From Roseibium marinum (lineage in GTDB: Bacteria; Pseudomonadota; Alphaproteobacteria; Rhizobiales; Stappiaceae), in the NCBI RefSeq assembly GCF_002906165.1, contig NZ_PPCN01000001.1, forward strand, positions 124,001-188,000: a stretch of DNA of 64,000 bases. The letters are read 5' to 3'. Of this stretch, positions 27,694 through 41,837 are shown piece by piece. The first letter of the stretch is position 1. The number at the start of each line of letters is the position of its first letter. A program made the position numbers and the translations under genes. The notes under the pieces are model-generated. The model had not been told where the DNA came from, made no database searches, and saw only the letters and a list, made by a program, of their open reading frames with translations.

Positions 27694-30591
27694 ATGAGCA
27701 TGATACGTCATTCGTCCCTTCTTTGGCATTATACCTACGGTGCTGTTTTCACGGCGCTATGCGCGTTTGCCGGACTGATCGGGCTTGTGGCTTATCAGCT
27801 TGAGGGCAGCATGGCCCGCCAGGAGACCGAACTGCTGCAGCTGTCGCAGTCCCGTCTGCAGGAAAAACTGTCGGCCGATGTGGAACTCGCAGGAACGCGG
27901 CTGGAATTTCTTTTTCAGGACAGGTACCGCCGGCTGAATTCGATCGCCGAGCGGGTCGACACCGCGAAAGCCATCGCGTCCAGGAATGTCGTCGCCATGT
28001 CCGAACTGCTCGGTCCGGCCGCCGTATTGGCGGATGTTGACGGGATCATCGTTCTGGACGAGGAGGCAAGGGTCATCGGCGCCTCATCCTACAGCGCGGA
28101 TCTGGTGACATTGGGATCTAAGATCCAGGGCTTCAGTTTCTATCCCGAAATGGCCCGGTCGCTGAAGGTAAGTTTCCCCGGCGAGAAGCGCACGGTCTCG
28201 AAAATCCTTCCCATCGCCGACACGCAGGTGTTCGTCCCGGACGAGACCGTCAACGCCGTATCGCAGATCATCTTCGTGCCGGTCTTTGACGACTTCGGAT
28301 ATGTGATCGGCGGGCTTCTGGCGCAGCGCTGGTTACGCCCGGAAGAAACCCTCCTTGCGGCGCTTGCCCAGATCAATGCCTTCGAACTGGCCATCGTCTA
28401 CGACGAGAGGATCATCTCGAGGGCGAATTTCGGCGGCACCGAATCCGATCTTGTCAGTTCGCCCGAAACGCCGAACCTGACGTCCAACGGTGAAAGGGTC
28501 ATCGAATGCGGCGTACCGGTTCTGCCGCTGTCGATATGCGCCCTGATGCCGATCGAGGCCCTGACGGAAACCCAGAATGAACTCACCAGGATCGGCATCG
28601 AGGAAGAGTCCAAGATGCTTAAATGGCTCTTTCTCTTCGGACTGCTGACCCTTGTCGCATTCGCGACCGTTGCCTTTCTTCTGGCCCGTCAGGTCACCCG
28701 TCCGCTGACAAACATAACTCGCGTGCTTTCCGGAATTGCCGACGGTGATTTCGAAAGCAAGGTGGTTGGTACCGAGCGCAGCGACGAAGTCGGCGATATC
28801 GCGCGCTCCGTTGTTTCCCTCCAGCGATCCGTCAAGGAACGGGACGCACTGCGCCTCAGGGTGAACGAGAAGAACCTGATCCTGAAATCGCAGGAAGCCC
28901 GGCTCCGCGAACAGAACGTCCTCTTCGATGCCGCTCTCAGCAATATGTCGCACGGTCTTTGCATGTTCGACGCGGCCGGCAAGCTGATCGTCTCGAACCA
29001 GCGCTACGCGGAACTTTTCGAACTGGAGCCGGGCGGGATCAGGCCAGGCATGACGGCGGCCGAACTCTCCGCATTCCAGAACGTCGAGACGCTCGAGCCG
29101 GAGAATCCGGGTTCCGCGGGCGCGCCATCCGCCCAGCGGAAGCCGTCTTCGGGAACGCAGAGCACGGAAATGGTGAAAATCCGCTCCGGCCGGATCGTTC
29201 TGACCACGCGCCAGCCGCTGTCCGACGGTGGCTGGGTGGCGATCTCGGAAGACATTACCGAGCGACAGGAAGCCCGCGACCGGCTGGCCTATCTTGCCCG
29301 CCACGACATCCTGACCCAACTGCCGAACAGAATAGAATTCCGCGACCGGAAGCAGGCGCTTCTCAAACGGCAGCAGGTTGAAGGAGGAGAGTTCGCGATC
29401 CTTTGTCTCGACCTCGATGAATTCAAGACCGTCAACGATTCCCTCGGCCACCCCATTGGCGACGAACTGCTGCGCCAGGTGGCGGCCCGGCTGAAGGCGC
29501 TGGCGAGCGGCAGCGAAATTGTCGTTCGTCTCGGCGGCGACGAATTCGCGATCCTGACCGGACTGCCTTCCCAGGTGCAGGAGATCGACGAGCTCGCCCA
29601 GACGATCATCTGGGAATTGTCTCAGCCGTTCCAGATCGCCGATCATGAGATCGTCATCGGCGTGAGCATCGGGATCTCGCTTGCCAGGGGAGACGGCACG
29701 GCGGGTGACGAGCTGTTCAAACAGGCCGATCTGGCGCTTTACAGGGCCAAGGAAGACGGACGCAATATCTATCGCTTCTTCGAAGCCGACATGGGCGTCG
29801 CGGTGAAAGACCGGCGTGAGCTGATCACCGATCTTCGCAATGCGGTCGGTAATGGCGAACTTGAACTCTATTTCCAGCCGCAATACTGCCTTCGGAGTTT
29901 CTCGATTTCCGGGTTCGAGGCCCTTGTCCGCTGGAACCATCCCACCCGAGGGCTTGTATCTCCCGCGGATTTCATTCCGCTTGCCGAGGACACCGGCCTG
30001 ATCAACCCGCTGGGGGAATGGGTTCTGCAGGAAGCCTGCCGCATCGCGGCGGACTGGCCGCAGCACCTGCGGGTGGCCGTGAACCTGTCGCCGCGGCAGC
30101 TGCGCGGTCACGCTTTCGGTCCAGTGCTGATCGAAAGCCTCGCCAGATCGGGACTGCGGGCGGAGCGCCTGGAACTGGAAGTGACGGAAGGTGTTCTCCT
30201 CACCGACTCCGATGATGTCCTGAACGCCCTGCATCAGGCCAAGTCCCTGGGGGTCAAGGTATCGATGGACGATTTCGGAACGGGGTATTCCTCCCTCAGC
30301 TACCTCCGGCGCTTCCCGTTCAACAAGATCAAGATCGATCAGTCCTTCGTCAGGTCGATGGCCTATTCCGATGACTCCATTTCCATCGTGAAGGCGATTA
30401 TCGGGCTGGCACAAGATCTCGATATGTCGACGACCGCCGAGGGGGTGGAAACCAAGGAATTGCTGGACATGCTGGTGGAAATCGGCTGCACCGAAGCGCA
30501 GGGTTATTACCTCGGTCGCCCCATGCCGGTTGCCGAAGCCCAGGAACTGATCTTCTCAGTTGACCAGGCGATATCGACGGCGGCCCAATAG
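27694..30591 (+). CDS. Membrane sensor with HAMP-PAS-GGDEF-EAL domains
   Basis: A 965-residue cyclic-di-GMP enzyme. Order: a first membrane helix (about 13-35), a periplasmic sensor region (about 36-305), a second helix (about 309-331), HAMP (to about 385), coiled coil, a PAS-like domain (about 415-525), GGDEF (canonical RLGGDEF at about 612-618) and EAL (EALVRW at about 742-747, and DDFGTGYSSLSYL). Both catalytic domains keep their signature residues, so synthesis and hydrolysis are both possible. The PBP-like gene 8 bp upstream suggests that periplasmic ligand binding controls the output. The signal is unknown. Confidence 0.94.
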   Translation: MSMIRHSSLLWHYTYGAVFTALCAFAGLIGLVAYQLEGSMARQETELLQLSQSRLQEKLSADVELAGTRLEFLFQDRYRRLNSIAERVDTAKAIASRNVVAMSELLGPAAVLADVDGIIVLDEEARVIGASSYSADLVTLGSKIQGFSFYPEMARSLKVSFPGEKRTVSKILPIADTQVFVPDETVNAVSQIIFVPVFDDFGYVIGGLLAQRWLRPEETLLAALAQINAFELAIVYDERIISRANFGGTESDLVSSPETPNLTSNGERVIECGVPVLPLSICALMPIEALTETQNELTRIGIEEESKMLKWLFLFGLLTLVAFATVAFLLARQVTRPLTNITRVLSGIADGDFESKVVGTERSDEVGDIARSVVSLQRSVKERDALRLRVNEKNLILKSQEARLREQNVLFDAALSNMSHGLCMFDAAGKLIVSNQRYAELFELEPGGIRPGMTAAELSAFQNVETLEPENPGSAGAPSAQRKPSSGTQSTEMVKIRSGRIVLTTRQPLSDGGWVAISEDITERQEARDRLAYLARHDILTQLPNRIEFRDRKQALLKRQQVEGGEFAILCLDLDEFKTVNDSLGHPIGDELLRQVAARLKALASGSEIVVRLGGDEFAILTGLPSQVQEIDELAQTIIWELSQPFQIADHEIVIGVSIGISLARGDGTAGDELFKQADLALYRAKEDGRNIYRFFEADMGVAVKDRRELITDLRNAVGNGELELYFQPQYCLRSFSISGFEALVRWNHPTRGLVSPADFIPLAEDTGLINPLGEWVLQEACRIAADWPQHLRVAVNLSPRQLRGHAFGPVLIESLARSGLRAERLELEVTEGVLLTDSDDVLNALHQAKSLGVKVSMDDFGTGYSSLSYLRRFPFNKIKIDQSFVRSMAYSDDSISIVKAIIGLAQDLDMSTTAEGVETKELLDMLVEIGCTEAQGYYLGRPMPVAEAQELIFSVDQAISTAAQ

Positions 30592-30618: not shown

Positions 30619-31635
30619 CTAACCGGCCGTCGTGGATGTGAACTGCGTTGCCGCCTTCCGCAACAGGGCGCCGGCAAAAGCCAGCACGCCTTTGTCCTCT
30701 TCCGCGACATAAAACGGATCGGCGTAGAAGGTGGCCCCCGACTTGCGGGCAAGGTCCCGCATCGCTTCCACATGCGCCGGCGCGCCTGCCGAATAGATGA
30801 CATGGTCCGGGGTCAGGTCGCCGACAAGTTCGTGCGGACGCGCCGACAGCACGGTCTCGTCGTCGCCGTCGCTTGCCGTCAGCGAAATCGTAATGCCGCG
30901 ATTGCGCAGCCAGCGCACCGCGTCGCGCATGTAAAGACCGTCTCTGGTCCGGGCCCCGGCAACGATACGGATTTCCCGGCCTGGCTGACCCATGCTCGCG
31001 GCAACGGCAATGGACCATATCGGTGCGAACCCGGTCCCGGTCGAGGTCAGGAGAATCGGCTCCGGTTGCCGGCGCAGGAACGCGTTGCCGAAAGGACCGT
31101 GAAGCTTGACGCTGTGGCCCTTCTTGATGTCGGTTCCCAGTTTTGAGGAAACGGCGCTGTCCGGATAGACCTTGATGTGGAAGACGATGATGTCCAGTTC
31201 CGCATCCAGGTTGAGCGGTGTCGTCGGGCTGTAGTCCCGGGGCGGATAACCCGCGAATGTGGCCCGCAGATACTGGCCGGCAAGCCAGGTGACCGGCCGT
31301 GCCACGCGAATGCGGACTTCCAGATAGTCTTTCCTGACTTCGCGGATGGTTTCAACGATGCCTTTGGCGGTTTTCACCACTGGCACGGGGTCATAGGATA
31401 TTTCCGCATCGCCCGTGAGCACGGATATGCACCCGAGCACGGTGTCCTTTTCGCGCGTTCCCAGATCGTCGATCCCGCCGTTCAGCACACGAACCCGGCA
31501 GGTCTCGCACTGGCCCGAGCAGCAGTCGTGCGGGATGACGAGACGTCCCCCCAGACCGGCGTCGATCAGGGTATCCCCGACATTGGCCTTGATCTTCTTG
31601 CCGTTGATCGTGACGGTGCATGTGCTCTTTGACAT
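30619..31635 (-). CDS. 2Fe-2S ferredoxin-flavin oxidoreductase
   Basis: A 338-residue electron-transfer protein. Residues 1-90 are a plant-type ferredoxin domain with cluster ligands Cys38, Cys43, Cys46 and Cys69. This is followed by a ferredoxin-reductase-like FAD domain (PPRDYSPTTPL, about 135-145) and an NAD(P) domain (LTSTGTGFAPIWSI). The architecture matches reductases of mono- and dioxygenases. No oxygenase is adjacent; the neighbour in the same direction is a cytochrome b/ethylbenzene-dehydrogenase-like protein, 61 bp upstream. It may pass electrons between NAD(P)H and that membrane haem protein. This pairing is inference. Confidence 0.88.
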   Translation of the reverse strand: MSKSTCTVTINGKKIKANVGDTLIDAGLGGRLVIPHDCCSGQCETCRVRVLNGGIDDLGTREKDTVLGCISVLTGDAEISYDPVPVVKTAKGIVETIREVRKDYLEVRIRVARPVTWLAGQYLRATFAGYPPRDYSPTTPLNLDAELDIIVFHIKVYPDSAVSSKLGTDIKKGHSVKLHGPFGNAFLRRQPEPILLTSTGTGFAPIWSIAVAASMGQPGREIRIVAGARTRDGLYMRDAVRWLRNRGITISLTASDGDDETVLSARPHELVGDLTPDHVIYSAGAPAHVEAMRDLARKSGATFYADPFYVAEEDKGVLAFAGALLRKAATQFTSTTAG

Positions 31636-31667: not shown

Positions 31668-31715
31668 CCGGTTCAGTTGCCGGTTCAGTTGCCGGTTTAG
31701 TTGCCAGTTTTGTTG
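31668..31715. repeat. 12-bp tandem repeat (four copies) spanning a gene's stop codon
   Basis: Unit CCGGTTCAGTTG starts at 31668, 31680, 31692 and 31704; the last copy is diverged. The period is a multiple of three, so on the minus strand each unit reads Thr-Gly-Asn-stop. The third copy supplies the real TAA stop (31697-31699) of the cytochrome gene and the first two give in-frame TGA codons. The array probably arose by slippage at the gene end. Confidence 0.85.
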
Positions 31716-33490
31716 AACGTCAAACGCACCGGGCGCGAATGCCGTGTATGGCGGGTCTGATTGTGATCGAAGACCGACATCCACATGAACAGTCCGTCCT
31801 TCATGGCCAGATCCTTTTCGTAGCCTGTATCCATATCGCGGATGACTTCAAGCGTCCAATACCCGTCTTGCCATTTCGAGCCGCCCTGAAGGTCTGCCCG
31901 GTTGCCTGAATATTCGCCCTGGATCAGGACACCGGGAAGAACCGTGCCTACGGGAATTTCGGCGTCCTTGTCCAGCGAATAGGGAACGCTTTCTTCCTCC
32001 AGCATCCACCAATGTGCCCCCTGGTCCTCGCTGGTATTCACCGACAGGTCGATGTTTCCCATGAGGGCCGCCGTCTTCTTGTAGTCGATGGGAAGACGGC
32101 GGACGCCGACGGTGCCATGATAATGGGTCTCCGGATCGCCTATGTAGTTGTAGATGTAGAAGGCCTTGCCGTCATCCGAAGTGTAGCCGGCACTGTAACG
32201 GGCCTTGCCGGCCACCTGCGCTTCGGTCGGTTCGACGGGCGTGCCGAACCACATGTCGTCGACTTTGCCCAGCATGCCGCCGCGCGCGGCCTTCCACTGC
32301 CAGACATCGACCAGGCTGCCGTCGGTGGTGTAATGCAGGCCGCGCCCGTGAAAGGCCGCCGGTTTGTTGTCGAGCGGTTTGGGGCCCATATGCGTCGCAC
32401 CGCCACCGCCAAAGACGTCGCTGGTCGAAAAGGCCACGGAAAACTTGTCTTCATAGTAGGCCGTTTCGTCCGAGATATCCGCGCGGTTGTTCAGCATGCG
32501 CCAGCCGTCTTCGGTCTTGATGAGCGGGTGCCGTTTCAGCGAACGGGTAGGATCTTCCCAGCGAAAACCGAAGGCGATCTTGTCGCCGACCTGAACGGCG
32601 CGGATTTCGACGGTGGATACACCTGCGCCGTCGAGATTTGACCCCTGCTGGGTTTTGACAAACACAGGTTTGGCAGCCTGCCAGAGCGCATCGTCGAGAT
32701 TTCCGTCAAGCGTCGGCAATTCGTCCGCCCGGGCTACGACAAGGTCAGACCTTGTTCCGAAATCCAGCGTAACGGCGGCGGCGACGATCACCGCCCCGAG
32801 GGCGACGGCGATTGCAAGCGGACGCCGCGCCATGCCCGGATACCGGCGCAGGGACTGCGGTCGGAACAGCCGCAGAAGCTGCTCCAGTCCGCCATAGCAA
32901 TAATGAAGGACAACATGCGTGCCGATATAGGTCAGCACGACCACGGCCGCGGTAAAATGGACGGTCACCCAGATGCCGCCATACCCCATGTAGAGCAGGA
33001 CACCCGTGGCCGACAACGCGATGACGGAGGCGAACAGGATCCAGTAGGCGATGACGCTGACCGCCGCGATACGCAGCTTGTTGCTGGCGGGCAGGGTCAG
33101 GACGACTATTTTCTTGGAGGAAATCCGTCTTTTCAGACGCGCCAGTGACATATAGGCGGCATAGGCGAAGATAAGGGCCAGCACGAAGACGGCGGAGACA
33201 TAGTGCCAGGTCCAGATCTCGCCCTGGGGCAGAATTGGCTCGAACAGTTTGGAGAACCACGCGCCTTCCGCGTCGGCGGACAGTCTGAGGCCGGTCAGAA
33301 GGCTGACAAAGATGGCGGTCACAAGCGTCCAGTGGAGCAGGATGGTGCCAGGATCGCTGCGAACCGGTACCTTGCTGCTGGGCGGCCTGCCCGCGGTGGA
33401 GCGGCTGTCCTGCTGCGGTCTGGCTTGTGTTGACGATTGTGGCGGAGCCGTGAGGTCGAGGGGATGGTTTGTCACGTGGTCCGTCAACAT
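31697..33490 (-). CDS. Cytochrome b561-type membrane domain fused to ethylbenzene-dehydrogenase-like haem domain
   Basis: A 597-residue protein. After a polar N-terminus (about 1-45) comes a membrane domain with about four helices (48-225) and candidate haem histidines in LLHWTL, WTWHYVS, VHFTAAV and GTHVVLHYC. A further helix (about 224-246) anchors a C-terminal domain (about 255-590) resembling the haem-b gamma subunit of ethylbenzene/DMSO-reductase type II enzymes (LDGNLDDALWQAAKP, VAFSTSD, DGYWTLEVIRDM). No molybdenum subunit is nearby. It may move electrons between the quinone pool and a periplasmic haem. Family assignment by pattern; partner unknown. Confidence 0.82.
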   Translation of the reverse strand: MLTDHVTNHPLDLTAPPQSSTQARPQQDSRSTAGRPPSSKVPVRSDPGTILLHWTLVTAIFVSLLTGLRLSADAEGAWFSKLFEPILPQGEIWTWHYVSAVFVLALIFAYAAYMSLARLKRRISSKKIVVLTLPASNKLRIAAVSVIAYWILFASVIALSATGVLLYMGYGGIWVTVHFTAAVVVLTYIGTHVVLHYCYGGLEQLLRLFRPQSLRRYPGMARRPLAIAVALGAVIVAAAVTLDFGTRSDLVVARADELPTLDGNLDDALWQAAKPVFVKTQQGSNLDGAGVSTVEIRAVQVGDKIAFGFRWEDPTRSLKRHPLIKTEDGWRMLNNRADISDETAYYEDKFSVAFSTSDVFGGGGATHMGPKPLDNKPAAFHGRGLHYTTDGSLVDVWQWKAARGGMLGKVDDMWFGTPVEPTEAQVAGKARYSAGYTSDDGKAFYIYNYIGDPETHYHGTVGVRRLPIDYKKTAALMGNIDLSVNTSEDQGAHWWMLEEESVPYSLDKDAEIPVGTVLPGVLIQGEYSGNRADLQGGSKWQDGYWTLEVIRDMDTGYEKDLAMKDGLFMWMSVFDHNQTRHTRHSRPVRLTFNKTGN

Positions 33491-34282: not shown

Positions 34283-35653
34283 ATGATGCTGGTCTCCCAT
34301 AGCCGAATTATCGATATCGTCGGCGATATCATCCGGATTGCGGTGTCGTCCTCAAGGCCGGGGTCGGAGGGGCGCCCGTGTCTGGGCGATCTGGCGCTGG
34401 TGGATCCAGGCAACGGCAACACTTCTCTCGCGCAGGTCATCAATATTGACGGCGAAATGGTGTCCCTTCAGGTGAATTCCGGCACCAAGGGACTGGCGAA
34501 CAACGCTTCTGTCCGTTTTCTGGGCGAGCCGGCGAAGGTCACCTATTCGGGCAATATCCTTGGCCGGGTGTTCGACGGTGCCGGTCAACCCATCGACCGG
34601 GGGCCGGACCTTTCGAGCGATCCGTCCGTTCCGCTCGGCGGTCCTTCCGCCAACCCGATGAAGCGCGTTCTGGCCTCGCGCCTGATCCGCACCGACGTGC
34701 CGATGATCGATGTCTTCAATTGCCTGGTGGAAAGCCAGAAGATCCCGATCTTCTCCGTATCGGGCGAGCCCTACAATCCCTTTCTGGCGCGTATCGGAAT
34801 TCAGGCCGACGCCGATATCGTCGTCTTCGGCGGGCTTGGCCTGATTTTCGACGACTATGCCTTCTTCCGCAAACAGTTCGAGGACGCCGGTGTCTTTCCC
34901 CGCACGGTGATGTACATCAACCAGGCGTCCGATCCGGTGGTCGAGCGACTGCAGGTTCCGGACATGGTGCTGGCGGTTGCGGAGAAATTCGCGGTCGAGG
35001 AAGGCAAGCGCGTCCTTGTGCTGCTGACCGACATGACCGCCTTCGCGGATGCGCTGAAGGAAGTCTCCATCGCCATGGAGCGGGTCCCGGCGAACCGCGG
35101 CTATCCGGGCGATCTCTATTCCCAGCTCGCCCGCCGCTACGAAAAAGCCTGTGATTTCAAAGGGGCGGGCTCGGTCACAATCCTGACAGTCACAACCATG
35201 CCCGGCAATGATGTGACCCATCCCGTGCCCGACAACACCGGCTACATCACTGAGGGCCAGTTCTACCTGCACAGCGGCGTCATCGATCCCTTCGGTTCGC
35301 TCTCCCGCCTGAAGCAGCATGTGATCGGCAAGGTGACCCGCGAGGATCACAACCAGATCATGAATACCATGATCCGGTTTTATTCCGGGGCGCGGGACGC
35401 GGAACAGAAACAGTCGATGGCCTTCGAATTGTCGGACTATGACCGGCAACTGCTGAAATTCGGCGCCCTGTTCCGAGAGCGTTTCATGGATATCGAGGTG
35501 TCGAAACCGCTGGAGGAGGCGCTGGATCTGTGTTGGCGGACCCTGGCGGAATGCTTCGAACCCGACCAGCTTCTCATGAAGCAGGCGCTGATCGACAAGT
35601 ACCTTCCGGACAGGGCGCCGCCGGTGAAATCCGCTGACGGGGAGGCCGCCTGA
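34283..35653 (+). CDS. ntpB: V-type ATPase subunit B
   Basis: A 456-residue non-catalytic regulatory subunit of the V1 head. Family motifs include SGNILGRVFDGAGQPIDRGP, FSVSGEPYNPFLARIG, VVFGGLGLIFDDYAFFRK, LLTDMTAFADALKE, RGYPGDLYSQLARRYE and PVPDNTGYITEGQ. It lacks a Walker A lysine, as expected for subunit B. F-type beta and flagellar FliI are excluded by these motifs. It is the first gene of the operon in this window and overlaps subunit D by one nt. Confidence 0.96.
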   Translation: MMLVSHSRIIDIVGDIIRIAVSSSRPGSEGRPCLGDLALVDPGNGNTSLAQVINIDGEMVSLQVNSGTKGLANNASVRFLGEPAKVTYSGNILGRVFDGAGQPIDRGPDLSSDPSVPLGGPSANPMKRVLASRLIRTDVPMIDVFNCLVESQKIPIFSVSGEPYNPFLARIGIQADADIVVFGGLGLIFDDYAFFRKQFEDAGVFPRTVMYINQASDPVVERLQVPDMVLAVAEKFAVEEGKRVLVLLTDMTAFADALKEVSIAMERVPANRGYPGDLYSQLARRYEKACDFKGAGSVTILTVTTMPGNDVTHPVPDNTGYITEGQFYLHSGVIDPFGSLSRLKQHVIGKVTREDHNQIMNTMIRFYSGARDAEQKQSMAFELSDYDRQLLKFGALFRERFMDIEVSKPLEEALDLCWRTLAECFEPDQLLMKQALIDKYLPDRAPPVKSADGEAA

Positions 35654-36276
35654 TGGCAAGGCTGGCGCTCAACAAATCGTCCCTTGCCAGGGAAAGCGCG
35701 CAGCTGGCGGAGTATAATCGCTTCCTGCCTTCGCTGGAGCTCAAGCGCCTTCAGATCGTCGCGGAGCGTGCCAAGGCCAAGGATACGCTGAAGCGGCTGG
35801 ATGAGGAATATCGGCGGAGTTTCGATGACATCGCCGCATCGCTGCCGATGCTCGCCAACAGACTTGTGCCTCTCCAGGGCCTGGTAACGATCAGGAAGCT
35901 GGTCAGGGGAGAGCAGAATCTTTCCGGAACCATTTTGCCGACGCTTGAAGACGTCGAGCTCGAAACCAGACCCTATTCCCTGCTGGCACGCCCCCACTGG
36001 GTCGATCCTTATGTGAAGGGTATGCGGGACCTGTTGCGGCTGAGCCTGGAGCTTGAAGTCGCCACAGAGCGGGTGAAGCGTCTGCTGGAGGCGGAGGCCG
36101 TGATTTCGCGGCGGGTCAATCTGTTCGAGAAGGTGCTCATTCCGCAGGCTGCGCGCAACATCAGGAAAATCCGCATGGCCCTGGCGGATGCGGAGCGCGA
36201 CGCGGTGGTGCGCGCGAAGATCTCCAAACGCAAGACGGCCGCCCGCGCAGCCGGGGCAAGGATGGCCGAACTATGA
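35653..36276 (+). CDS. ntpD: V-type ATPase subunit D (central stalk)
   Basis: A 207-residue mostly helical protein. The N-terminus (LALNKSSLARESAQLAEYNRFLPSLELKR) and the C-terminal helix (RRVNLFEKVLIPQAARNIRKIR) match the antiparallel coiled coil of the rotor axle, equivalent to F-type gamma. It overlaps subunits B (one nt) and I (four nt). Confidence 0.94.
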   Translation: MARLALNKSSLARESAQLAEYNRFLPSLELKRLQIVAERAKAKDTLKRLDEEYRRSFDDIAASLPMLANRLVPLQGLVTIRKLVRGEQNLSGTILPTLEDVELETRPYSLLARPHWVDPYVKGMRDLLRLSLELEVATERVKRLLEAEAVISRRVNLFEKVLIPQAARNIRKIRMALADAERDAVVRAKISKRKTAARAAGARMAEL

Positions 36277-38066
36277 GTATCGTGCCCCTTGTCAAGGTGA
36301 GCCTGATCGGCGTTCTGGACGACAAGGACACGGTTCTGGAAGCCACACAGCGCTTCGGCGCCCTGCATCTTATCCCGCTTGCCTCGGCGCAAAAGGAGCT
36401 GGAAGCCGTTCCTCCCGGCGGTGGCCGGGAAGCGGTTGAAGCGCTGCGGTGGCTGGTGGCCTGTCCTTCCCAGCGCCGCCCGGTCACCGACCCGGACCGT
36501 TTCGATCTCGAAAGCGTCGTCGTGCAGACCCGGAAGAACCGCAGTGCGATGAAAGACTGCGAGGATCTTGTCGCCAAGCTCGACCGGCGCATCCAGGATG
36601 TCGAACCCTGGGGAGAATTCAGCTTTTCCGATCTCGCGGAGATCGGCGACAACCGGTTGTGGTTCTATGTCGTGCCGCTTGCAAAGCTCAGCAACATCGA
36701 TACCTCCGGCAAGGTTCTGGAGATTGTGCACAAGGACAGGTACCGCGCCTATATCGTGCTCCTGGCGCCTGAAGAGCCGCCGGTCGGCGCCATGCCGGTG
36801 CCGCGGGTGCATGTCGGCGCTGAATCTCTGTCGACCCTGAAACACAGTTATGAAGAAGCGGTCATCGATCTCGAGGAGTTGCAGCTCGAGCGGCAGGCCC
36901 TGACGAAATGGCGCTATGTCCTGGCGCGGAACCTGGCCGCCGCTCGCGACCATTCCGCCCGCCGCCGCGCCGCTCTCGAGACGGCCGACACCGACCGCGT
37001 ATTTGTGCTTCAGGCCTGGGCGCGGCACGACCGGATCGCGACGGTAAGGGATCTGGCCGGTCAGCTCGGCGTTGCGGCGCTGTTCGATGAGGTTTCGGAA
37101 AACGACGCGCCGCCGACACTTCTGGAAAACGATCCGTCCGTCGCCGCCGGGGAGGATCTGGTCGAGTTCTACCAGACGCCCGGCTACCGCGACTGGGACC
37201 CGTCCCCGGTCGTCTATGTCTCGTTTATCGTCTTCTTCGGCATGATCATGACGGACGCGGGTTACGGCCTGTTGCTGCTGCTGCTGCTTTTCCTGTTCCG
37301 CAAGCGTTTCGCCGGCTCGGCCCTTGGCCGGCGAATGTTCTCGATGTCCGTCTGGCTCTCGGTGTCCACCGCCGCTTTCGGCGTGGCCACGGGGAGTTAT
37401 TTCGGCGTGGAGCCACCAGAGGGGAGTTTTCTCGCGCATCTCAATGTGCTGCCCCTGAAGAATGTCGATGCGATGATGAAAATCACGCTCACCATCGGTG
37501 TCCTGCACGTGGTTCTGGCCAATCTCATGCGCGCCTGCCATGAAAAAACGCTGAGTGGCCGGCTCCAGCCCGTCGGCTGGTGCCTCGTGGCGCTCGGTGG
37601 ACTGGCCACCTTTCTTGGCCAGGGCACCCTGCTGGACAAGGCCGGACCGGCAGCGGTGATCGTCGGTCTCCTGGTCGTGGGGATCTTCGGCAGCGACCGC
37701 AAGGTCAACTCCCTGAAGGCGGGCGTCTTGCGCGTCTTCGACGGGCTCACGTCGCTTGCCCGGTTTATCAATATGTTTTCCGACGTCCTCAGCTACATGC
37801 GTCTCTTCGCGCTGGGGCTGGCGGCGGCCTCGCTCGGCGAGACGATCAACACCCTGTCGGGTCAGTTGAACGATGCGGTTCCCGGTGTCGGGATACTGAT
37901 TGCCATTCTGGTTCTGGCCGTCGGGCACGCGATCAATATCGGGCTCGGGCTGATTGCCGGCTGCGTGCACGGCTTGCGGCTGAATGTCATAGAATTTTTC
38001 AATTGGGGTCTGAAAGACGAAGGCACCCCCTTCCGTCCCTTCAGGAAAGAGGAGACACGCCTGTGA
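36273..38066 (+). CDS. ntpI: V-type ATPase subunit I (membrane stator, a-type)
   Basis: A 597-residue protein with a cytosolic N-terminal half (about 1-300) and a membrane half with seven or eight helices. It contains FFGMIMTDAGYGLLLLLLL, DVLSYMRLFALGLAAASLGE and, near the C-terminus, GCVHGLRLNVIEFFNWGLK. The arginine in HGLRL (Arg569) corresponds to the essential ion-channel arginine of the family. The start at 36273 overlaps subunit D. Somewhat shorter than archaeal homologues, as in chlamydial and spirochaetal enzymes. Confidence 0.95.
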   Translation: MSIVPLVKVSLIGVLDDKDTVLEATQRFGALHLIPLASAQKELEAVPPGGGREAVEALRWLVACPSQRRPVTDPDRFDLESVVVQTRKNRSAMKDCEDLVAKLDRRIQDVEPWGEFSFSDLAEIGDNRLWFYVVPLAKLSNIDTSGKVLEIVHKDRYRAYIVLLAPEEPPVGAMPVPRVHVGAESLSTLKHSYEEAVIDLEELQLERQALTKWRYVLARNLAAARDHSARRRAALETADTDRVFVLQAWARHDRIATVRDLAGQLGVAALFDEVSENDAPPTLLENDPSVAAGEDLVEFYQTPGYRDWDPSPVVYVSFIVFFGMIMTDAGYGLLLLLLLFLFRKRFAGSALGRRMFSMSVWLSVSTAAFGVATGSYFGVEPPEGSFLAHLNVLPLKNVDAMMKITLTIGVLHVVLANLMRACHEKTLSGRLQPVGWCLVALGGLATFLGQGTLLDKAGPAAVIVGLLVVGIFGSDRKVNSLKAGVLRVFDGLTSLARFINMFSDVLSYMRLFALGLAAASLGETINTLSGQLNDAVPGVGILIAILVLAVGHAINIGLGLIAGCVHGLRLNVIEFFNWGLKDEGTPFRPFRKEETRL

Positions 38067-38512
38067 ACGAATTCATTGTGGTTCTCGGTTGGTTCGGACT
38101 TTACGCGCCTGTCGCGTTTGGAGCGATCGGCAGTTCCTGGGGGTGCACGCTCGCCGGCAGCGCCGCCATCGGTGCAATGCTGGACAGCGATGGAGGCTAC
38201 GGCCGGTTTGTCGGCGTGTCGCTGATGCCGTCCTCCCAGGTGATCTACGGCATCGTGATCATGTTTTCTCTTCAGCGATCCAGCATCGACGCGGCGAACG
38301 GAGCGGCGCTTTTCGCGATCGGGGTTCTCTCAGGGGCCACGATGCTGTTGACCGGGATCCGCCAGGGAGAGGTGCTCGCCTCCGCCATCAACGCCTCCAA
38401 GGCCAAGCCGGAGATCTTCGGGATATCGCTGGCTCCCGCCGCGGTGCTGGAAGGCTTCTCGGTTTTCGCACTGGTGTTCGCATTGGTTCTGGCGGGTTCG
38501 ATCCCGGCTTAG
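38063..38512 (+). CDS. ntpK: V-type ATPase subunit K (c-ring, four-helix)
   Basis: A 149-residue proteolipid starting with GTG at 38063, overlapping the subunit I stop. It has two hairpins (four helices), as in the duplicated 16-kDa type. The single ion-carrying carboxylate is Glu130 in the fourth helix (PAAVLEGFSV). Residues matching the Na+ ligands of Enterococcus hirae NtpK are present: Ser58 (Thr64 there), Gln59, Tyr62, Gln101 and Glu130. This favours Na+ rather than H+ coupling. The long open frame that extends upstream of 38063 is only an overlap with subunit I. Confidence 0.95.
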   Translation: MNEFIVVLGWFGLYAPVAFGAIGSSWGCTLAGSAAIGAMLDSDGGYGRFVGVSLMPSSQVIYGIVIMFSLQRSSIDAANGAALFAIGVLSGATMLLTGIRQGEVLASAINASKAKPEIFGISLAPAAVLEGFSVFALVFALVLAGSIPA

Positions 38513-38521
38513 GAGGCGGTA

Positions 38522-39223
38522 ATGTCCAAACATGACGCGGCGGATGATCTTGAAAATGCCGCAGGCGCCGGTGTCCAGGCGCTGATCGAGCGCCTGAAAG
38601 CCGAAGGCGTTGCCGCCGGACAGTCCGAGGGCGAGGAAATTCTCGCCAAGGCCAGGGCGAAGGCGGAAGAAATCGTATCCGCGGCTCAGAAAAAAGCCGA
38701 AAGGCTGCTGGCGGAGGCGCGCGCCGAGGCGGTTAAGGAGAAGGCGGCGACCGAGGATGGTCTGAAAGTCGCGACCCGCGACCTGGTTCTGAGCCTGCGC
38801 AACGAACTCGGCGAGCGTATCCAGCAGGAAGCGGGCCGTCTGGTGGCAACGACGCTTGCCGATGAAGCCTTCCTGCGGAATCTCATTCTGGCCATGGCGG
38901 CCAATGCCAGGGAGAACGCTTCCGTCAGCGAAACCGAGCCGATGGAAATCGTACTGCCGGAAAAGGTCGTCTCGTTCGAGGAGCTGAGACAGTCGCCGGA
39001 AGCGGTTGAGCCCGGCACCTTGACGCATTTTGTCATCGCGCTTGCCGGAGACGTCCTGCGCGAAGGCGTGACCTTTTCCACCGCGCCGGGTTTCGACGGC
39101 ATAAAGGTCAAGCTCACGGACAGGGACGTTTCCATCGATCTTACCGAAGAAGCGATCGCGGCTCTCCTGAAACGGCATCTGCAGCCACGTCTGCGTGCCA
39201 TCATGGAAGGGGTCCTGAGGTAA
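38522..39223 (+). CDS. ntpE: V-type ATPase subunit E (peripheral stalk)
   Basis: A 233-residue protein. Residues about 15-110 form a long charged coiled coil rich in Ala, Glu and Lys; the C-terminal part is a globular domain (about 125-230). This is the shape of the V-ATPase E stator. GAGGCGG, nine nt before the ATG, is the probable ribosome-binding site. No subunit G/H partner gene was seen, so E may pair with itself or with an unrecognised protein. Confidence 0.88.
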   Translation: MSKHDAADDLENAAGAGVQALIERLKAEGVAAGQSEGEEILAKARAKAEEIVSAAQKKAERLLAEARAEAVKEKAATEDGLKVATRDLVLSLRNELGERIQQEAGRLVATTLADEAFLRNLILAMAANARENASVSETEPMEIVLPEKVVSFEELRQSPEAVEPGTLTHFVIALAGDVLREGVTFSTAPGFDGIKVKLTDRDVSIDLTEEAIAALLKRHLQPRLRAIMEGVLR

Positions 39224-39225
39224 CG

Positions 39226-40005
39226 ATGTCCCGGCCGCACCAATACATCATGCTGGTCACCAGCCTGCCGCATCTGGGGAAGATGTTCACCCGGAAGGAG
39301 GTGCCGATTTCCGAATTCCGATTGAAGCAAAGGCTGTCGATGCTTCGGCCCGATCACCTGCGCCTGTTGCGGGAATTGGTGGAAGTGACCGCCTGGGCGG
39401 GCGTCGCCCGCTATAGCCTCGACAGCGAGGTGCTCCGCCGTGCCAGGGAAGTAATAGGGGATCTGAAGGATTACCCCGACCTTCAGCATCTGGTTGGCGC
39501 ACGCATGGAGACACGCACCGTGATCGCCGCGCTCCGCCGCCGCCGGGACGGTCAGGAAACCGCCGGCGACATTGAAAACTGGGGCTTCGGCCGCTGGTGC
39601 GGCCGGATCGCGAACCACTGGAGCGATCCGGGACTCGGCCTCGGCAATTTCATGCCCTGGGTCGCGGAAGCGCACCGCCTGATGCAATCCGGCAATCATA
39701 TCGCGATGGAGCGCCTCAGCCTGACCCAGATTTTCCGTCAACTCGACCACTACGGCATGCTGCACGAGTTCGATTTCGAGGCGGTGGCGATCTATGTGCT
39801 GCGCTGGGTCATCGTCGAGCGCTGGTCGCGTTACAGCGAGGATGCGGCCCGGGAGCGGCTGCAGCTTCTGGTGACTGCCGCGCTCGGTGGCCCCAACGCG
39901 CCCGGTGGCCCCAGCGAGCTGGATGGGATGGCCGCCGACGAACCTCCTCCCGGCCAGGGTTTATTCGCGGACGCCTCTTCAGCCCTTCAGGAAACCCTTT
40001 CATGA
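39226..40005 (+). CDS. DUF2764 family V-ATPase-associated protein (subunit C-like role)
   Basis: A 259-residue soluble protein beginning with YIMLVTSLPHLG, the recognisable start of the DUF2764 family. That family is encoded between subunits E and A in chlamydial and spirochaetal V-ATPase operons. It has a second conserved stretch (GNFMPWVAEAHRLMQ ... FDFEAVAIYVLRWVIVERWSRY). Because subunit C is absent here, it likely caps the rotor or links it to the c-ring. The C-terminal 40 residues are low-complexity with a short repeat (GGPNAPGGPSE). Function is inferred from position. Confidence 0.82.
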   Translation: MSRPHQYIMLVTSLPHLGKMFTRKEVPISEFRLKQRLSMLRPDHLRLLRELVEVTAWAGVARYSLDSEVLRRAREVIGDLKDYPDLQHLVGARMETRTVIAALRRRRDGQETAGDIENWGFGRWCGRIANHWSDPGLGLGNFMPWVAEAHRLMQSGNHIAMERLSLTQIFRQLDHYGMLHEFDFEAVAIYVLRWVIVERWSRYSEDAARERLQLLVTAALGGPNAPGGPSELDGMAADEPPPGQGLFADASSALQETLS

Positions 40006-41837
40006 CCAGTCACGCTCAGCTTCCCGAACCGACCGCCCGGATCGTCGCCGTGCAGGACGACCTTGTGACACTCGCCCCGCTCGACGATGCGCCGCTGATC
40101 AAGAACGAAGTGGTTTATATCATTCCCCATGGTCCGGAACGGGACGGCAAGCCGCGTGAGTATCTGAAGGCGGAAGTGCTGCGCGTGCGCGGCAGCACGG
40201 CAGAGGCACAGGTCTTTGAAAGCACCGCCGGCGTGCGTGTCGGCGACCGGGTGATCCAGAGCGGCGAGATGCTCTCCGTGGCGCTCGGACCGGGCCTGCT
40301 CAGCACGGTGTTCGACGGTCTGCAGAACCCGCTTGCGGATATTGCCGCCGAATACGGCTTCTTCCTGCCGCGCGGCGTTCTGACCAACGCGCTCGACCAG
40401 AATCGCAAATGGGCCTTCGAACCCAAGGTCAAGTCCCGTGATCCGGTCAGGGCCGGCGATACGCTCGGCACGGTTCCTGAAGGACGCTTCGAGCACAAGA
40501 TCATGGTTCCGTTTTCCCTCACCGGAAACTGGACGGTTGAGCGGGTCCGCGAAGGCGCCTTCACGATCAACGAGGTTGTCGCCACACTCCGCAATGAGCG
40601 GGGCGAGACCCGCGACCTGACCATGGTCCAGCACTGGCCGGTGCGCCGCGCCATTCCCGAAAAACTGGTCAGGTCGGGACAATGCGAACGGCTCTATCCG
40701 AACGAACCCCTGATCACCACCCTGCGTCTGATCGATACGTTCTTTCCGATAGCACGCGGTGGCATGGGCTGTATCCCAGGTCCGTTCGGCGCCGGCAAGA
40801 CGGTGCTCCAGTCGCTGATATCGCGCTTCTCTGCGGTCAATATCGTCATCGTCGTTGCCTGCGGCGAGCGCGCCGGCGAGGTTGTCGAGACCATCACCGA
40901 ATTCCCGCAGCAGCCGGACCCTTCCGGCCACGGCACGCTGATGGACCGGACGGTTATCATCTGCAACACGTCTTCCATGCCCGTCGCCGCACGCGAAGCG
41001 TCTATCTATACCGGTATCACGCTGGGCGAATACTATCGCCAGATGGGCTATGATGTTCTGCTGATCGCCGACAGCACCTCGCGCTGGGCGCAGGCGATGC
41101 GCGAAACCTCAGGGCGTCTCGAGGAGATCCCGGGAGAGGAAGCTTTCCCGGCCTATCTGGATTCCGCGATCAAGGGTGTCTATGAGCGCGCCGGTGTCCT
41201 GAGAACCGCGACCGGGGAAACCGGCAGTCTCACCATGATCGGCACGGTCTCGCCCGCAGGCGGCAACTTCGAGGAACCGGTCACCCAGTCGACGCTCGGC
41301 ACGGTCAAGACATTCCTGGGCCTGTCCTCCGAACGCGCCTACAAGCGCTTCTATCCCGCGGTGGATCCCCTGCTGTCCTGGTCTCGCTATCACACCCAGC
41401 TCGCAGCATGGTATGACAAGAATATCGGCCCCGATTGGGTGCCCAGGGTGGAGGAAATGATCGACCTGCTCAAAAAGGGGGATGAAATCAACCGCATGAT
41501 GCAGGTGACCGGGGAGGAAGGCGTTTCGACCGAGGATTTTGTCCTGCAGCAGAAGGCGCTGTTTCTCGACATGGTCTATCTTCAGCAGGATGCCTTTGAC
41601 GATGTGGACGTGTCCGCGCCCCTGGCGCGCCAGCAGGAAACGTTCGATCTGGTCTACAAGATCGCCAGAACCGGCTTCGCCTTTGACGGCAAGGACGCGG
41701 TCCGGCGGTTCTTCACCGAACAGACATCCCTGTTCAGGAACCTCAATTATGCCGCGGACGGCAGTCAGGACCGCAGGGATCTGCTTGAGAAAATCTGCGA
41801 AAATGTGAGGTCCGCTCCGCGGCATGTGCCGGCGTGA
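40002..41837 (+). CDS. ntpA: V-type ATPase catalytic subunit A
   Basis: A 611-residue catalytic subunit. Walker A GPFGAGKT is at about 260-267 (Lys266), the catalytic glutamate is in ACGERAGEVVE, and Walker B in DVLLIADSTSRWAQAMRE. The non-homologous insert typical of A subunits (about 110-220) is present, which excludes F-type beta. ATG 40002 overlaps the DUF2764 stop; the open frame upstream to 39597 is an overlap artefact. It ends the operon. Having A last and B first is unusual. Confidence 0.96.
   Translation: MTSHAQLPEPTARIVAVQDDLVTLAPLDDAPLIKNEVVYIIPHGPERDGKPREYLKAEVLRVRGSTAEAQVFESTAGVRVGDRVIQSGEMLSVALGPGLLSTVFDGLQNPLADIAAEYGFFLPRGVLTNALDQNRKWAFEPKVKSRDPVRAGDTLGTVPEGRFEHKIMVPFSLTGNWTVERVREGAFTINEVVATLRNERGETRDLTMVQHWPVRRAIPEKLVRSGQCERLYPNEPLITTLRLIDTFFPIARGGMGCIPGPFGAGKTVLQSLISRFSAVNIVIVVACGERAGEVVETITEFPQQPDPSGHGTLMDRTVIICNTSSMPVAAREASIYTGITLGEYYRQMGYDVLLIADSTSRWAQAMRETSGRLEEIPGEEAFPAYLDSAIKGVYERAGVLRTATGETGSLTMIGTVSPAGGNFEEPVTQSTLGTVKTFLGLSSERAYKRFYPAVDPLLSWSRYHTQLAAWYDKNIGPDWVPRVEEMIDLLKKGDEINRMMQVTGEEGVSTEDFVLQQKALFLDMVYLQQDAFDDVDVSAPLARQQETFDLVYKIARTGFAFDGKDAVRRFFTEQTSLFRNLNYAADGSQDRRDLLEKICENVRSAPRHVPA

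What the first reader, a model, noticed from the sequence alone, without database searches (positions are those of the whole stretch)
34283..41837. V-type ATPase operon in an alphaproteobacterium with rotated chlamydia/spirochaete-like gene order
Seen: seven genes in the order B-D-I-K-E-DUF2764-A, all overlapping or within 9 nt. Known: bacterial V-ATPase operons of chlamydiae and spirochaetes run E-DUF2764-A-B-D-I-K and lack C, F and G. The present order is the same circle cut between A and B. Alphaproteobacteria use F-type synthases, so a second rotary ATPase is unexpected. Inferred: horizontal acquisition followed by rearrangement, possibly by tandem duplication and loss or by circular insertion, and a role such as ion extrusion.
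Basis: partly seen in the sequence, partly recalled or inferred. Interest (0 to 1): 0.75.

Follow-up and report, generated by a model that had tools for sequence, protein, structure and literature searches.

The report
Sodium-type V-ATPase operon in Roseibium
A marine Roseibium bacterium carries, next to its normal ATP synthase, a seven-gene V-type rotary ATPase that likely spends ATP to pump sodium out; the operon is known from this genus and widespread, but its unexplained seventh gene is predicted to be the "missing" rotor subunit C, and in several relatives the operon sits beside genes for making ATP without respiration.

The parts
34283..35653 (+). subunit B (non-catalytic), short bacterial type; GEPYNPF at 34763-34783
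   Evidence: NF002555 687 bits, cut-off 431; open frame; motif place
35653..36276 (+). subunit D (rotor shaft)
   Evidence: PF01813 112 bits, cut-off 25.7
36273..38066 (+). subunit I (a-type stator with ion half-channels); SYMRLFALG at 37791-37817 holds what looks like the channel arginine (motif recalled, not from a call)
   Evidence: PF01496 53 bits, cut-off 30.7; motif place
38063..38512 (+). subunit K (two-hairpin rotor-ring subunit, GTG start); residues S58, Q59, Y62, Q101, E130 align with E. hirae NtpK T64, Q65, Y68, Q110, E139
   Evidence: PRK09621 155 bits, cut-off 108; aligned to 2bl2_A, E 8.5e-07; conservation
38522..39223 (+). subunit E (peripheral stalk)
   Evidence: PRK01558 82 bits (cut-off 241), PRK01005 48 bits (cut-off 280): below cut-offs, right place
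39226..40005 (+). DUF2764-family protein X, predicted shortened subunit C (d/AC39); METRTVIAALRRR at 39505-39543 aligns with a D..N.....R segment of subunit C
40002..41837 (+). subunit A (catalytic), Walker A GPFGAGKT at 40779-40802
   Evidence: PRK04192 750 bits, cut-off 470; motif place

Best explanation
This is a V/A-type rotary ATPase operon of the reduced Borrelia/Chlamydia/Bacteroides kind that likely works as an ATP-driven sodium-export pump beside the cell's predicted proton-type F-type synthase. Shown: the seven genes and their order; the order's conservation in a wide clade; the sodium-motif residues in K and their absence in the F-type c subunit. Inferred: A/B hydrolyse ATP, shaft D turns the K ring, DUF2764 (X) sits as subunit C between shaft and ring, I gives the half-channels and E the outer stalk; F and G are absent from the operon. 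Direction (hydrolysis, Na+ outward) is inferred from the second, proton-type synthase, from the sodium motif and from neighbours in some relatives: enzymes that form ATP without respiration, and Na+-coupled carriers. The operon likely entered Roseibium's ancestors horizontally, already rotated; the rotation most likely arose by tandem duplication of the operon with loss from both ends, which keeps the cyclic order and moves only the cut.
Confidence: 0.72

Rival explanations
1. The enzyme is a second ATP synthase that makes ATP from a sodium gradient (as in some archaea and anaerobes), not a pump.
For: Rotary ATPases are reversible; the Na+ motif would allow synthesis; a two-hairpin K ring is not an absolute bar.
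Against: The cell already has an F-type synthase with a predicted proton-type c ring. Some relatives pair the operon with enzymes that make ATP, which a synthase would not need. A two-hairpin K with one carboxylate lowers the ion:ATP ratio and favours pumping (established knowledge, not tested here).
Confidence: 0.13
2. It is a proton pump (acid or pH control) rather than a sodium pump.
For: The Q65 equivalent varies in 19 of 61 relatives; some H+ enzymes keep part of the Na+ ligands (PMC2359735, passages).
Against: The window's K keeps every side-chain ligand equivalent; S/T64, Q110 and E139 equivalents are kept in 97 of 97 K proteins examined (61, 36); Na+-coupled carriers adjoin the operon in three relatives.
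Confidence: 0.13
3. The rotated order arose in Roseibium itself after acquisition of a chlamydia/spirochaete-type operon.
For: The order is a rotation of E-X-A-B-D-I-K.
Against: The rotated order is shared by all 71 complete loci, from alpha-, beta- and gammaproteobacteria, cyanobacteria and others; on the trees these form one clade apart from Bacteroidota.
Confidence: 0.02
4. DUF2764 is not subunit C but an assembly factor or unrelated helical stalk protein.
For: Weak sequence signal; 259 residues against 320-351 in the matched C/d chains.
Against: Specific fold match, shared segment and invariant arginine, AC39 hits at or over cut-off in three Bacteroides-like members, and gene position.
Confidence: 0.15

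Closest known systems
V-ATPase of Borrelia, Chlamydia, Kuenenia and Bacteroidota (reduced bacterial type)
   Same: Same parts, with an unknown gene between E and A in Kuenenia, whose cluster is said to resemble Borrelia's (PMC2936114, passages), and DUF2764 there in Bacteroidota; B of the NF002555 family.
   Different: Operon cut between A and B instead of between K and E. Having an F-type synthase too is not a difference from Bacteroides.
V-type ATPase of Labrenzia aggregata IAM 12614 (Mulkidjanian et al. 2008, Table 1) and its homologue in L054
   Same: Same genus, V- plus F-type ATPase already tabulated (PMC2359735, passage); L054 has the same gene order, B 91% identical.
   Different: The passages read discuss neither gene order, DUF2764 nor neighbours of this operon.
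V-type ATPase of coastal Synechococcus BSS/WH5701/BO8801 (PMC7434838)
   Same: Authors note nearest relatives in Leptolyngbya, Methylococcaceae and Rhodospirillaceae and call it enigmatic (passages); BO 8801 locus L105 has the same order.
   Different: L105 has a PPK2 gene 283 bp upstream, divergent; the window has none.
Enterococcus NtpIKECFABD-type ATPase
   Same: Same cyclic order with C where X is (E. gallinarum); K aligns to the E. hirae Na+ ring 2bl2 with the ligands kept.
   Different: Has annotated C and F genes; order starts at I.
N-ATPase (laterally transferred F-type ion pump)
   Same: Second rotary ATPase presumed to be an ATP-driven ion pump (PMC11738941, parts 1-2 of 3).
   Different: F-type subunits and order; a second beta gene scoring above the ordinary F-type ones is present in only 6 of 45 genomes of this genus, none over the TIGR03305 cut-off.

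Membership tests
V/A-type rotary ATPase | Core subunits A, B, D, I, K encoded together | tested here: met
   All five over a curated family cut-off
V/A-type rotary ATPase | Intact nucleotide site in A and ion-binding carboxylate in K | tested here: met
   GPFGAGKT in A; E130 in K aligned with E139 of 2bl2
V/A-type rotary ATPase | ATP hydrolysis or synthesis coupled to ion transport | not testable with these tools
   No biochemical data
Reduced Borrelia/Chlamydia/Bacteroidota V-ATPase type | B of the short NF002555 family, DUF2764 gene between E and A, no F or G gene in the operon | tested here: met
   gaps of at most 9 nt leave no room for F or G
Reduced Borrelia/Chlamydia/Bacteroidota V-ATPase type | Gene order E-X-A-B-D-I-K | tested here: not met
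   Order is B-D-I-K-E-X-A, a rotation
Na+-type K ring (motif of Mulkidjanian 2008 as used by ProAD) | Full set of Na+ ligands | tested here: met
   S58, Q59, Q101, E130 aligned with T64, Q65, Q110, E139; residue roles from PMC2359735 passages and recall; Na+ binding itself untested
Subunit C / d (AC39, PF01992) | AC39 fold | tested here: met
Subunit C / d (AC39, PF01992) | Sequence match to PF01992 over its cut-off | tested here: inconclusive
   Window X: none at E 0.05; 1 of 56 members at E 0.032. Of 6 Bacteroidota-type DUF2764 scanned (4 chosen because they bore a precomputed AC39 domain), 2 over, 1 at and 2 under the cut-off of 29 bits, 1 without a match
Subunit C / d (AC39, PF01992) | Sits between rotor shaft and K ring | not testable with these tools
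   Needs a structure of the complex
N-ATPase | F-type alpha/beta with specific order | tested here: not met
   The seven genes are V/A-type or DUF2764

The most novel reading that the evidence does not exclude
The rotated V-ATPase operon is a mobile emergency sodium pump that bacteria repeatedly couple to whichever enzyme makes ATP without respiration (arginine deiminase/carbamate kinase, polyphosphate kinase 2, acetate kinase), so that a cell whose respiration stalls can still keep its ion gradient; and the long 'missing' subunit C of this whole bacterial V-ATPase type, spirochaetes and chlamydiae included, is DUF2764.
Probability: 0.4. Interest if true: 0.72.

Novelty: new variant of a known kind. 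Interest (0 to 1): 0.5.

Why it matters
Marine proteobacteria and cyanobacteria of several groups carry a second, V-type rotary ATPase whose purpose is called enigmatic in print for Synechococcus (PMC7434838, passages). The neighbour pattern gives it a testable job, and naming DUF2764 as subunit C would fill the gap that made these small V-ATPases, including those of Borrelia and Chlamydia, look as if they lacked the link between shaft and ring (PMC2936114, passages). The one cyclic gene order met with four different cuts is a clean case for studying how operons rotate.

Tried and rejected
A recent Roseibium-specific rearrangement was rejected because all complete relatives share the order. 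Replacement by N-ATPase was considered: a second TIGR03305-like beta gene (605-730 bits, against at most 584 for the ordinary ones) is in 6 of 45 genomes, 4 of which also have the V-ATPase, so no replacement pattern. Arginine deiminase as the fuel in the window's own genome was rejected: no arcA match there; in the genus 8 of 45 genomes have a full-length arcA match (5 over the cut-off; the tally of 18 counts weak partial matches too), 2 of them about 2 kb from the V-ATPase. Foldseek alone for X, a sequence search of PDB with the X profile (0 hits at E 10) and hhalign with 5 C proteins led nowhere; the Bacteroides DUF2764 model was too poor to use. The idea that every V-ATPase operon is a rotation of one circle fails for Streptomyces L142 (C, I, K, two small genes, A, B, D).

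Limits of the neighbour count: the Pfam count used 106 ORFs of 49 loci; 101 were picked by me from the 151 printed and five (arcC of L065, L084, L095, L111 and PPK2 of L102) were put in by hand because the mechanical ORF choice had taken a shadow frame or missed them (checked). As run: PPK2 7, AA_kinase 6, acetate kinase 3, level with two methyltransferase domains at 3. Without the five: PPK2 6, acetate kinase 3, AA_kinase 2 (my subtraction). Stappiaceae loci other than L065 and the two plasmid loci were left out of that count; the former show none of these genes. I first took the ORF upstream of L109 for a second Sbt_1 carrier; one search shows it is unrelated and it is dropped. Many hits are close relatives; on the 92-row tree the label (30 of 90 rows, carbamoyltransferase-only rows included) needs at least 10 changes. 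That tree leaves out L137, L138, L194 and L222 (a stop inside B) and thins Roseibium; loci without both A and B are absent from both trees. The later set is not wholly independent: L192 equals L071 in A and B.
Full report
What is there. Window 34283-41837 holds seven genes on the + strand, B, D, I, K, E, a DUF2764-family gene (X) and A, with 1-4 nt overlaps or gaps of 2 and 9 nt. Five are identified over curated cut-offs (A, B, D, I, K), E only below its cut-offs, in the expected place. X has no family match at E 0.001 by itself; 55 of 56 aligned members match DUF2764 at E <= 0.05, and several database relatives of X carry that name or domain.

Whose it is. The nearest B proteins (96-97% identical) are from Roseibium/Labrenzia, Stappiaceae. 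The genome has seven PF00006 genes: the two in the window, an F-type pair at C1:569-572 kb, and three more on C13, C7 and C2 that I take for flagellar/secretion-type ATPases and Rho (recalled; no family call was made). It also has an F-type c gene.

How common it is. 35 of 45 genomes of the genus, and 45 of 87 of the family, have B over the NF002555 cut-off. In Pseudomonadota at large 6 of 398 evenly drawn genomes do, two of them this genome and one of its family; in the order of G389, a genome of the same phylum but another class, 33 of 390. A scan of the species-genome collection found 420 stretches encoding a relative of B, of which the best 80 were kept. In 71 of these 80 all seven genes are found in the order B-D-I-K-E-X-A; the other nine stop at a contig end, or in L081 at a 100-N gap, and agree until then. 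A later set of 38 loci gave 34 with the same order, one cut by its contig (L199), one with B only on a short contig (L193), one operon of another type (L194), and one, L189, with D-I-K-E-X-A-B.

Rotation. Bacteroidota records show E-X-A-B-D-I-K, Enterococcus and clostridial records I-K-E-C-F-A-B-D, Rubrobacter D, a small unnamed gene, then I-K-E-C-F-A-B (K and C there read from place and size). With X in the place of C these are one circle cut at four points, and the D-first cut recurs in the X-type operon L189, which lies within the rotated clade on the tree (long branch). Streptomyces L142 is an exception: C stands before I. Tandem duplication followed by loss at both ends would give such rotations; no duplicated intermediate was seen. 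On the A+B tree (quick search, SH-aLRT support) the rotated operons form one clade against Bacteroidota (100); Inquilinus, with a record labelled Mycobacterium sp. KBS0706, groups with two Stappia species (99) inside the Stappiaceae set (99); a Tateyamaria plasmid copy stands beside Ruegeria (95). Two of 17 plasmid records matching A at E 1e-40 are alphaproteobacterial replicons carrying the whole operon. So the operon moves horizontally as a unit. Within the Stappiaceae-type set L045-L077, 13 of 33 loci keep both flanking genes of the window (31697 upstream, 43337 downstream); L053 and L060 keep the downstream and a farther upstream one, L049 (contig start) the downstream one; the other 17 lie elsewhere or are too short. 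Of ten genus genomes without the operon, three keep the upstream flanking gene, and two of these (G006, G017) keep both flanks with no operon between, which fits loss or late gain equally.

Ion. K aligns with the E. hirae sodium ring (2bl2) with S58, Q59, Y62, Q101 and E130 on T64, Q65, Y68, Q110 and E139. S/T64, Q110 and E139 equivalents are kept in 61 of 61 complete relatives and 36 of 36 later loci; Q65 in 42 and 34. The genome's F-type c lacks the glutamine and the serine/threonine after the glutamate (my reading of the printed sequence). ProAD reports that where several rotary ATPases coexist they typically differ in ion, and counts one F- plus one A-type in 890 genera (PMC11738941, parts 1-2 of 3). 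So a Na+ A/V-type beside an H+ F-type is a known combination, predicted here, not shown.

Neighbours. All-against-all clustering of flanking ORFs brought up a YfcC-like carrier, arcA, arcB and arcC upstream. Counting arcC, PPK2 and acetate kinase within 2 kb of the operon: 8 + 8 + 3 = 19 of 82 loci (80 relatives plus 2 plasmids). Beyond 2 kb, a territory 2.3 times larger, only PPK2 of L116, arcA of L133 and an acetate kinase of L082 turn up apart from the rest of the arc clusters. In the Pfam scan of 106 near ORFs PPK2 (7), AA_kinase (6) and acetate kinase (3, level with two methyltransferase domains) came first, five of these ORFs placed by hand. In the later set 13 of 36 operon loci have such genes within 650 bp in the same direction: arcC in 2, ornithine carbamoyltransferase alone in 9, acetate kinase in 2. 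Ornithine carbamoyltransferase alone does not make ATP, so the strict count is 4 of 36; the 15 loci of family f81 have none. Sodium carriers adjoin in L108 (Sbt_1, upstream), L086 (Na_H_Exchanger, 58 bp downstream) and L116 (SSF, facing) among 20 near ORFs scanned singly. The window's own operon has none of these ATP-forming neighbours, so the fuel idea rests on relatives. Searches for arginine deiminase with V-type ATPase (3 papers) and for papers with at least four of polyphosphate kinase, V-type ATPase, acetate kinase, gene cluster and sodium (32, 12 listed) showed no such report by title; I read passages of one (PMC3091704), which does not make the link.

Verdict. Observation confirmed; a known type of enzyme in a known host genus, in an order standard for its clade. 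New here, as far as these searches go, are the identification of DUF2764 with subunit C, the cyclic-order view and the recurring ATP-forming neighbours. Papers: PMC11738941 parts 1-2 of 3; PMC2359735, PMC7434838, PMC3091704, PMC5706428 and PMC2936114 passages; all others search listings only. On re-checking I mended the count at the conserved site (13, not about 18), the territory ratio (2.3, not 4) and dropped L109's carrier; none of these changes the odds.

Noticed in passing
L189 9479-16874 (G167:C84): Same V-ATPase with order D-I-K-E-X-A-B, a further rotation within the clade; a PPK2-like match lies 3.5 kb downstream.
   Followed up: partly
L065 3826-17506; L035 and L038 left ends: Arginine deiminase operon (YfcC-like carrier, arcA, arcB, arcC) upstream of and co-directional with the V-ATPase in Roseibium polysiphoniae; L038 (arcC 100% identical, probably the same species) and L035 (97%) show arcB and arcC there too.
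   Followed up: partly
L134 2459-10800, Tateyamaria plasmid pDOK1-4-1; L133, Qingshengfaniella plasmid: Whole operon on plasmids; on the first a carbamate kinase gene overlaps the start of B, and the X gene is annotated as two short proteins.
   Followed up: partly
L137 585-10706: In E. gallinarum an arginine deiminase gene also lies upstream of the V-type operon, an operon of the other, C- and F-bearing type.
   Followed up: no
L123 7112-9892: A PEP-synthase/pyruvate-phosphate-dikinase-like gene lies 97 bp upstream of the operon.
   Followed up: no
L073 (NZ_VCCH02000104.1): Record labelled Mycobacterium sp. KBS0706 carries an operon closest to that of Inquilinus limosus; the label is probably wrong.
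   Followed up: no
L135, L136, L139: Bacteroidota records named 'plasmid' show housekeeping-like gene neighbourhoods; they may be chromosome pieces (L139 has no annotation).
   Followed up: no
L222 89-1405 (G820:C44): B gene with a stop inside in an otherwise complete operon: a decaying copy or a sequencing error.
   Followed up: no
G004, G043, G040, G024, G003, G009: Second beta genes resembling alternate (N-type) F-ATPase in 6 of 45 genomes of the genus, below the curated cut-off.
   Followed up: no
window 31697-33490, 30619-31635 and 27694-30591: Flank of the operon site kept in part of Roseibium; from the sequence it looks like a cytochrome b-like haem protein, a ferredoxin-type reductase and a GGDEF/EAL protein (labels recalled, no family call made).
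   Followed up: no
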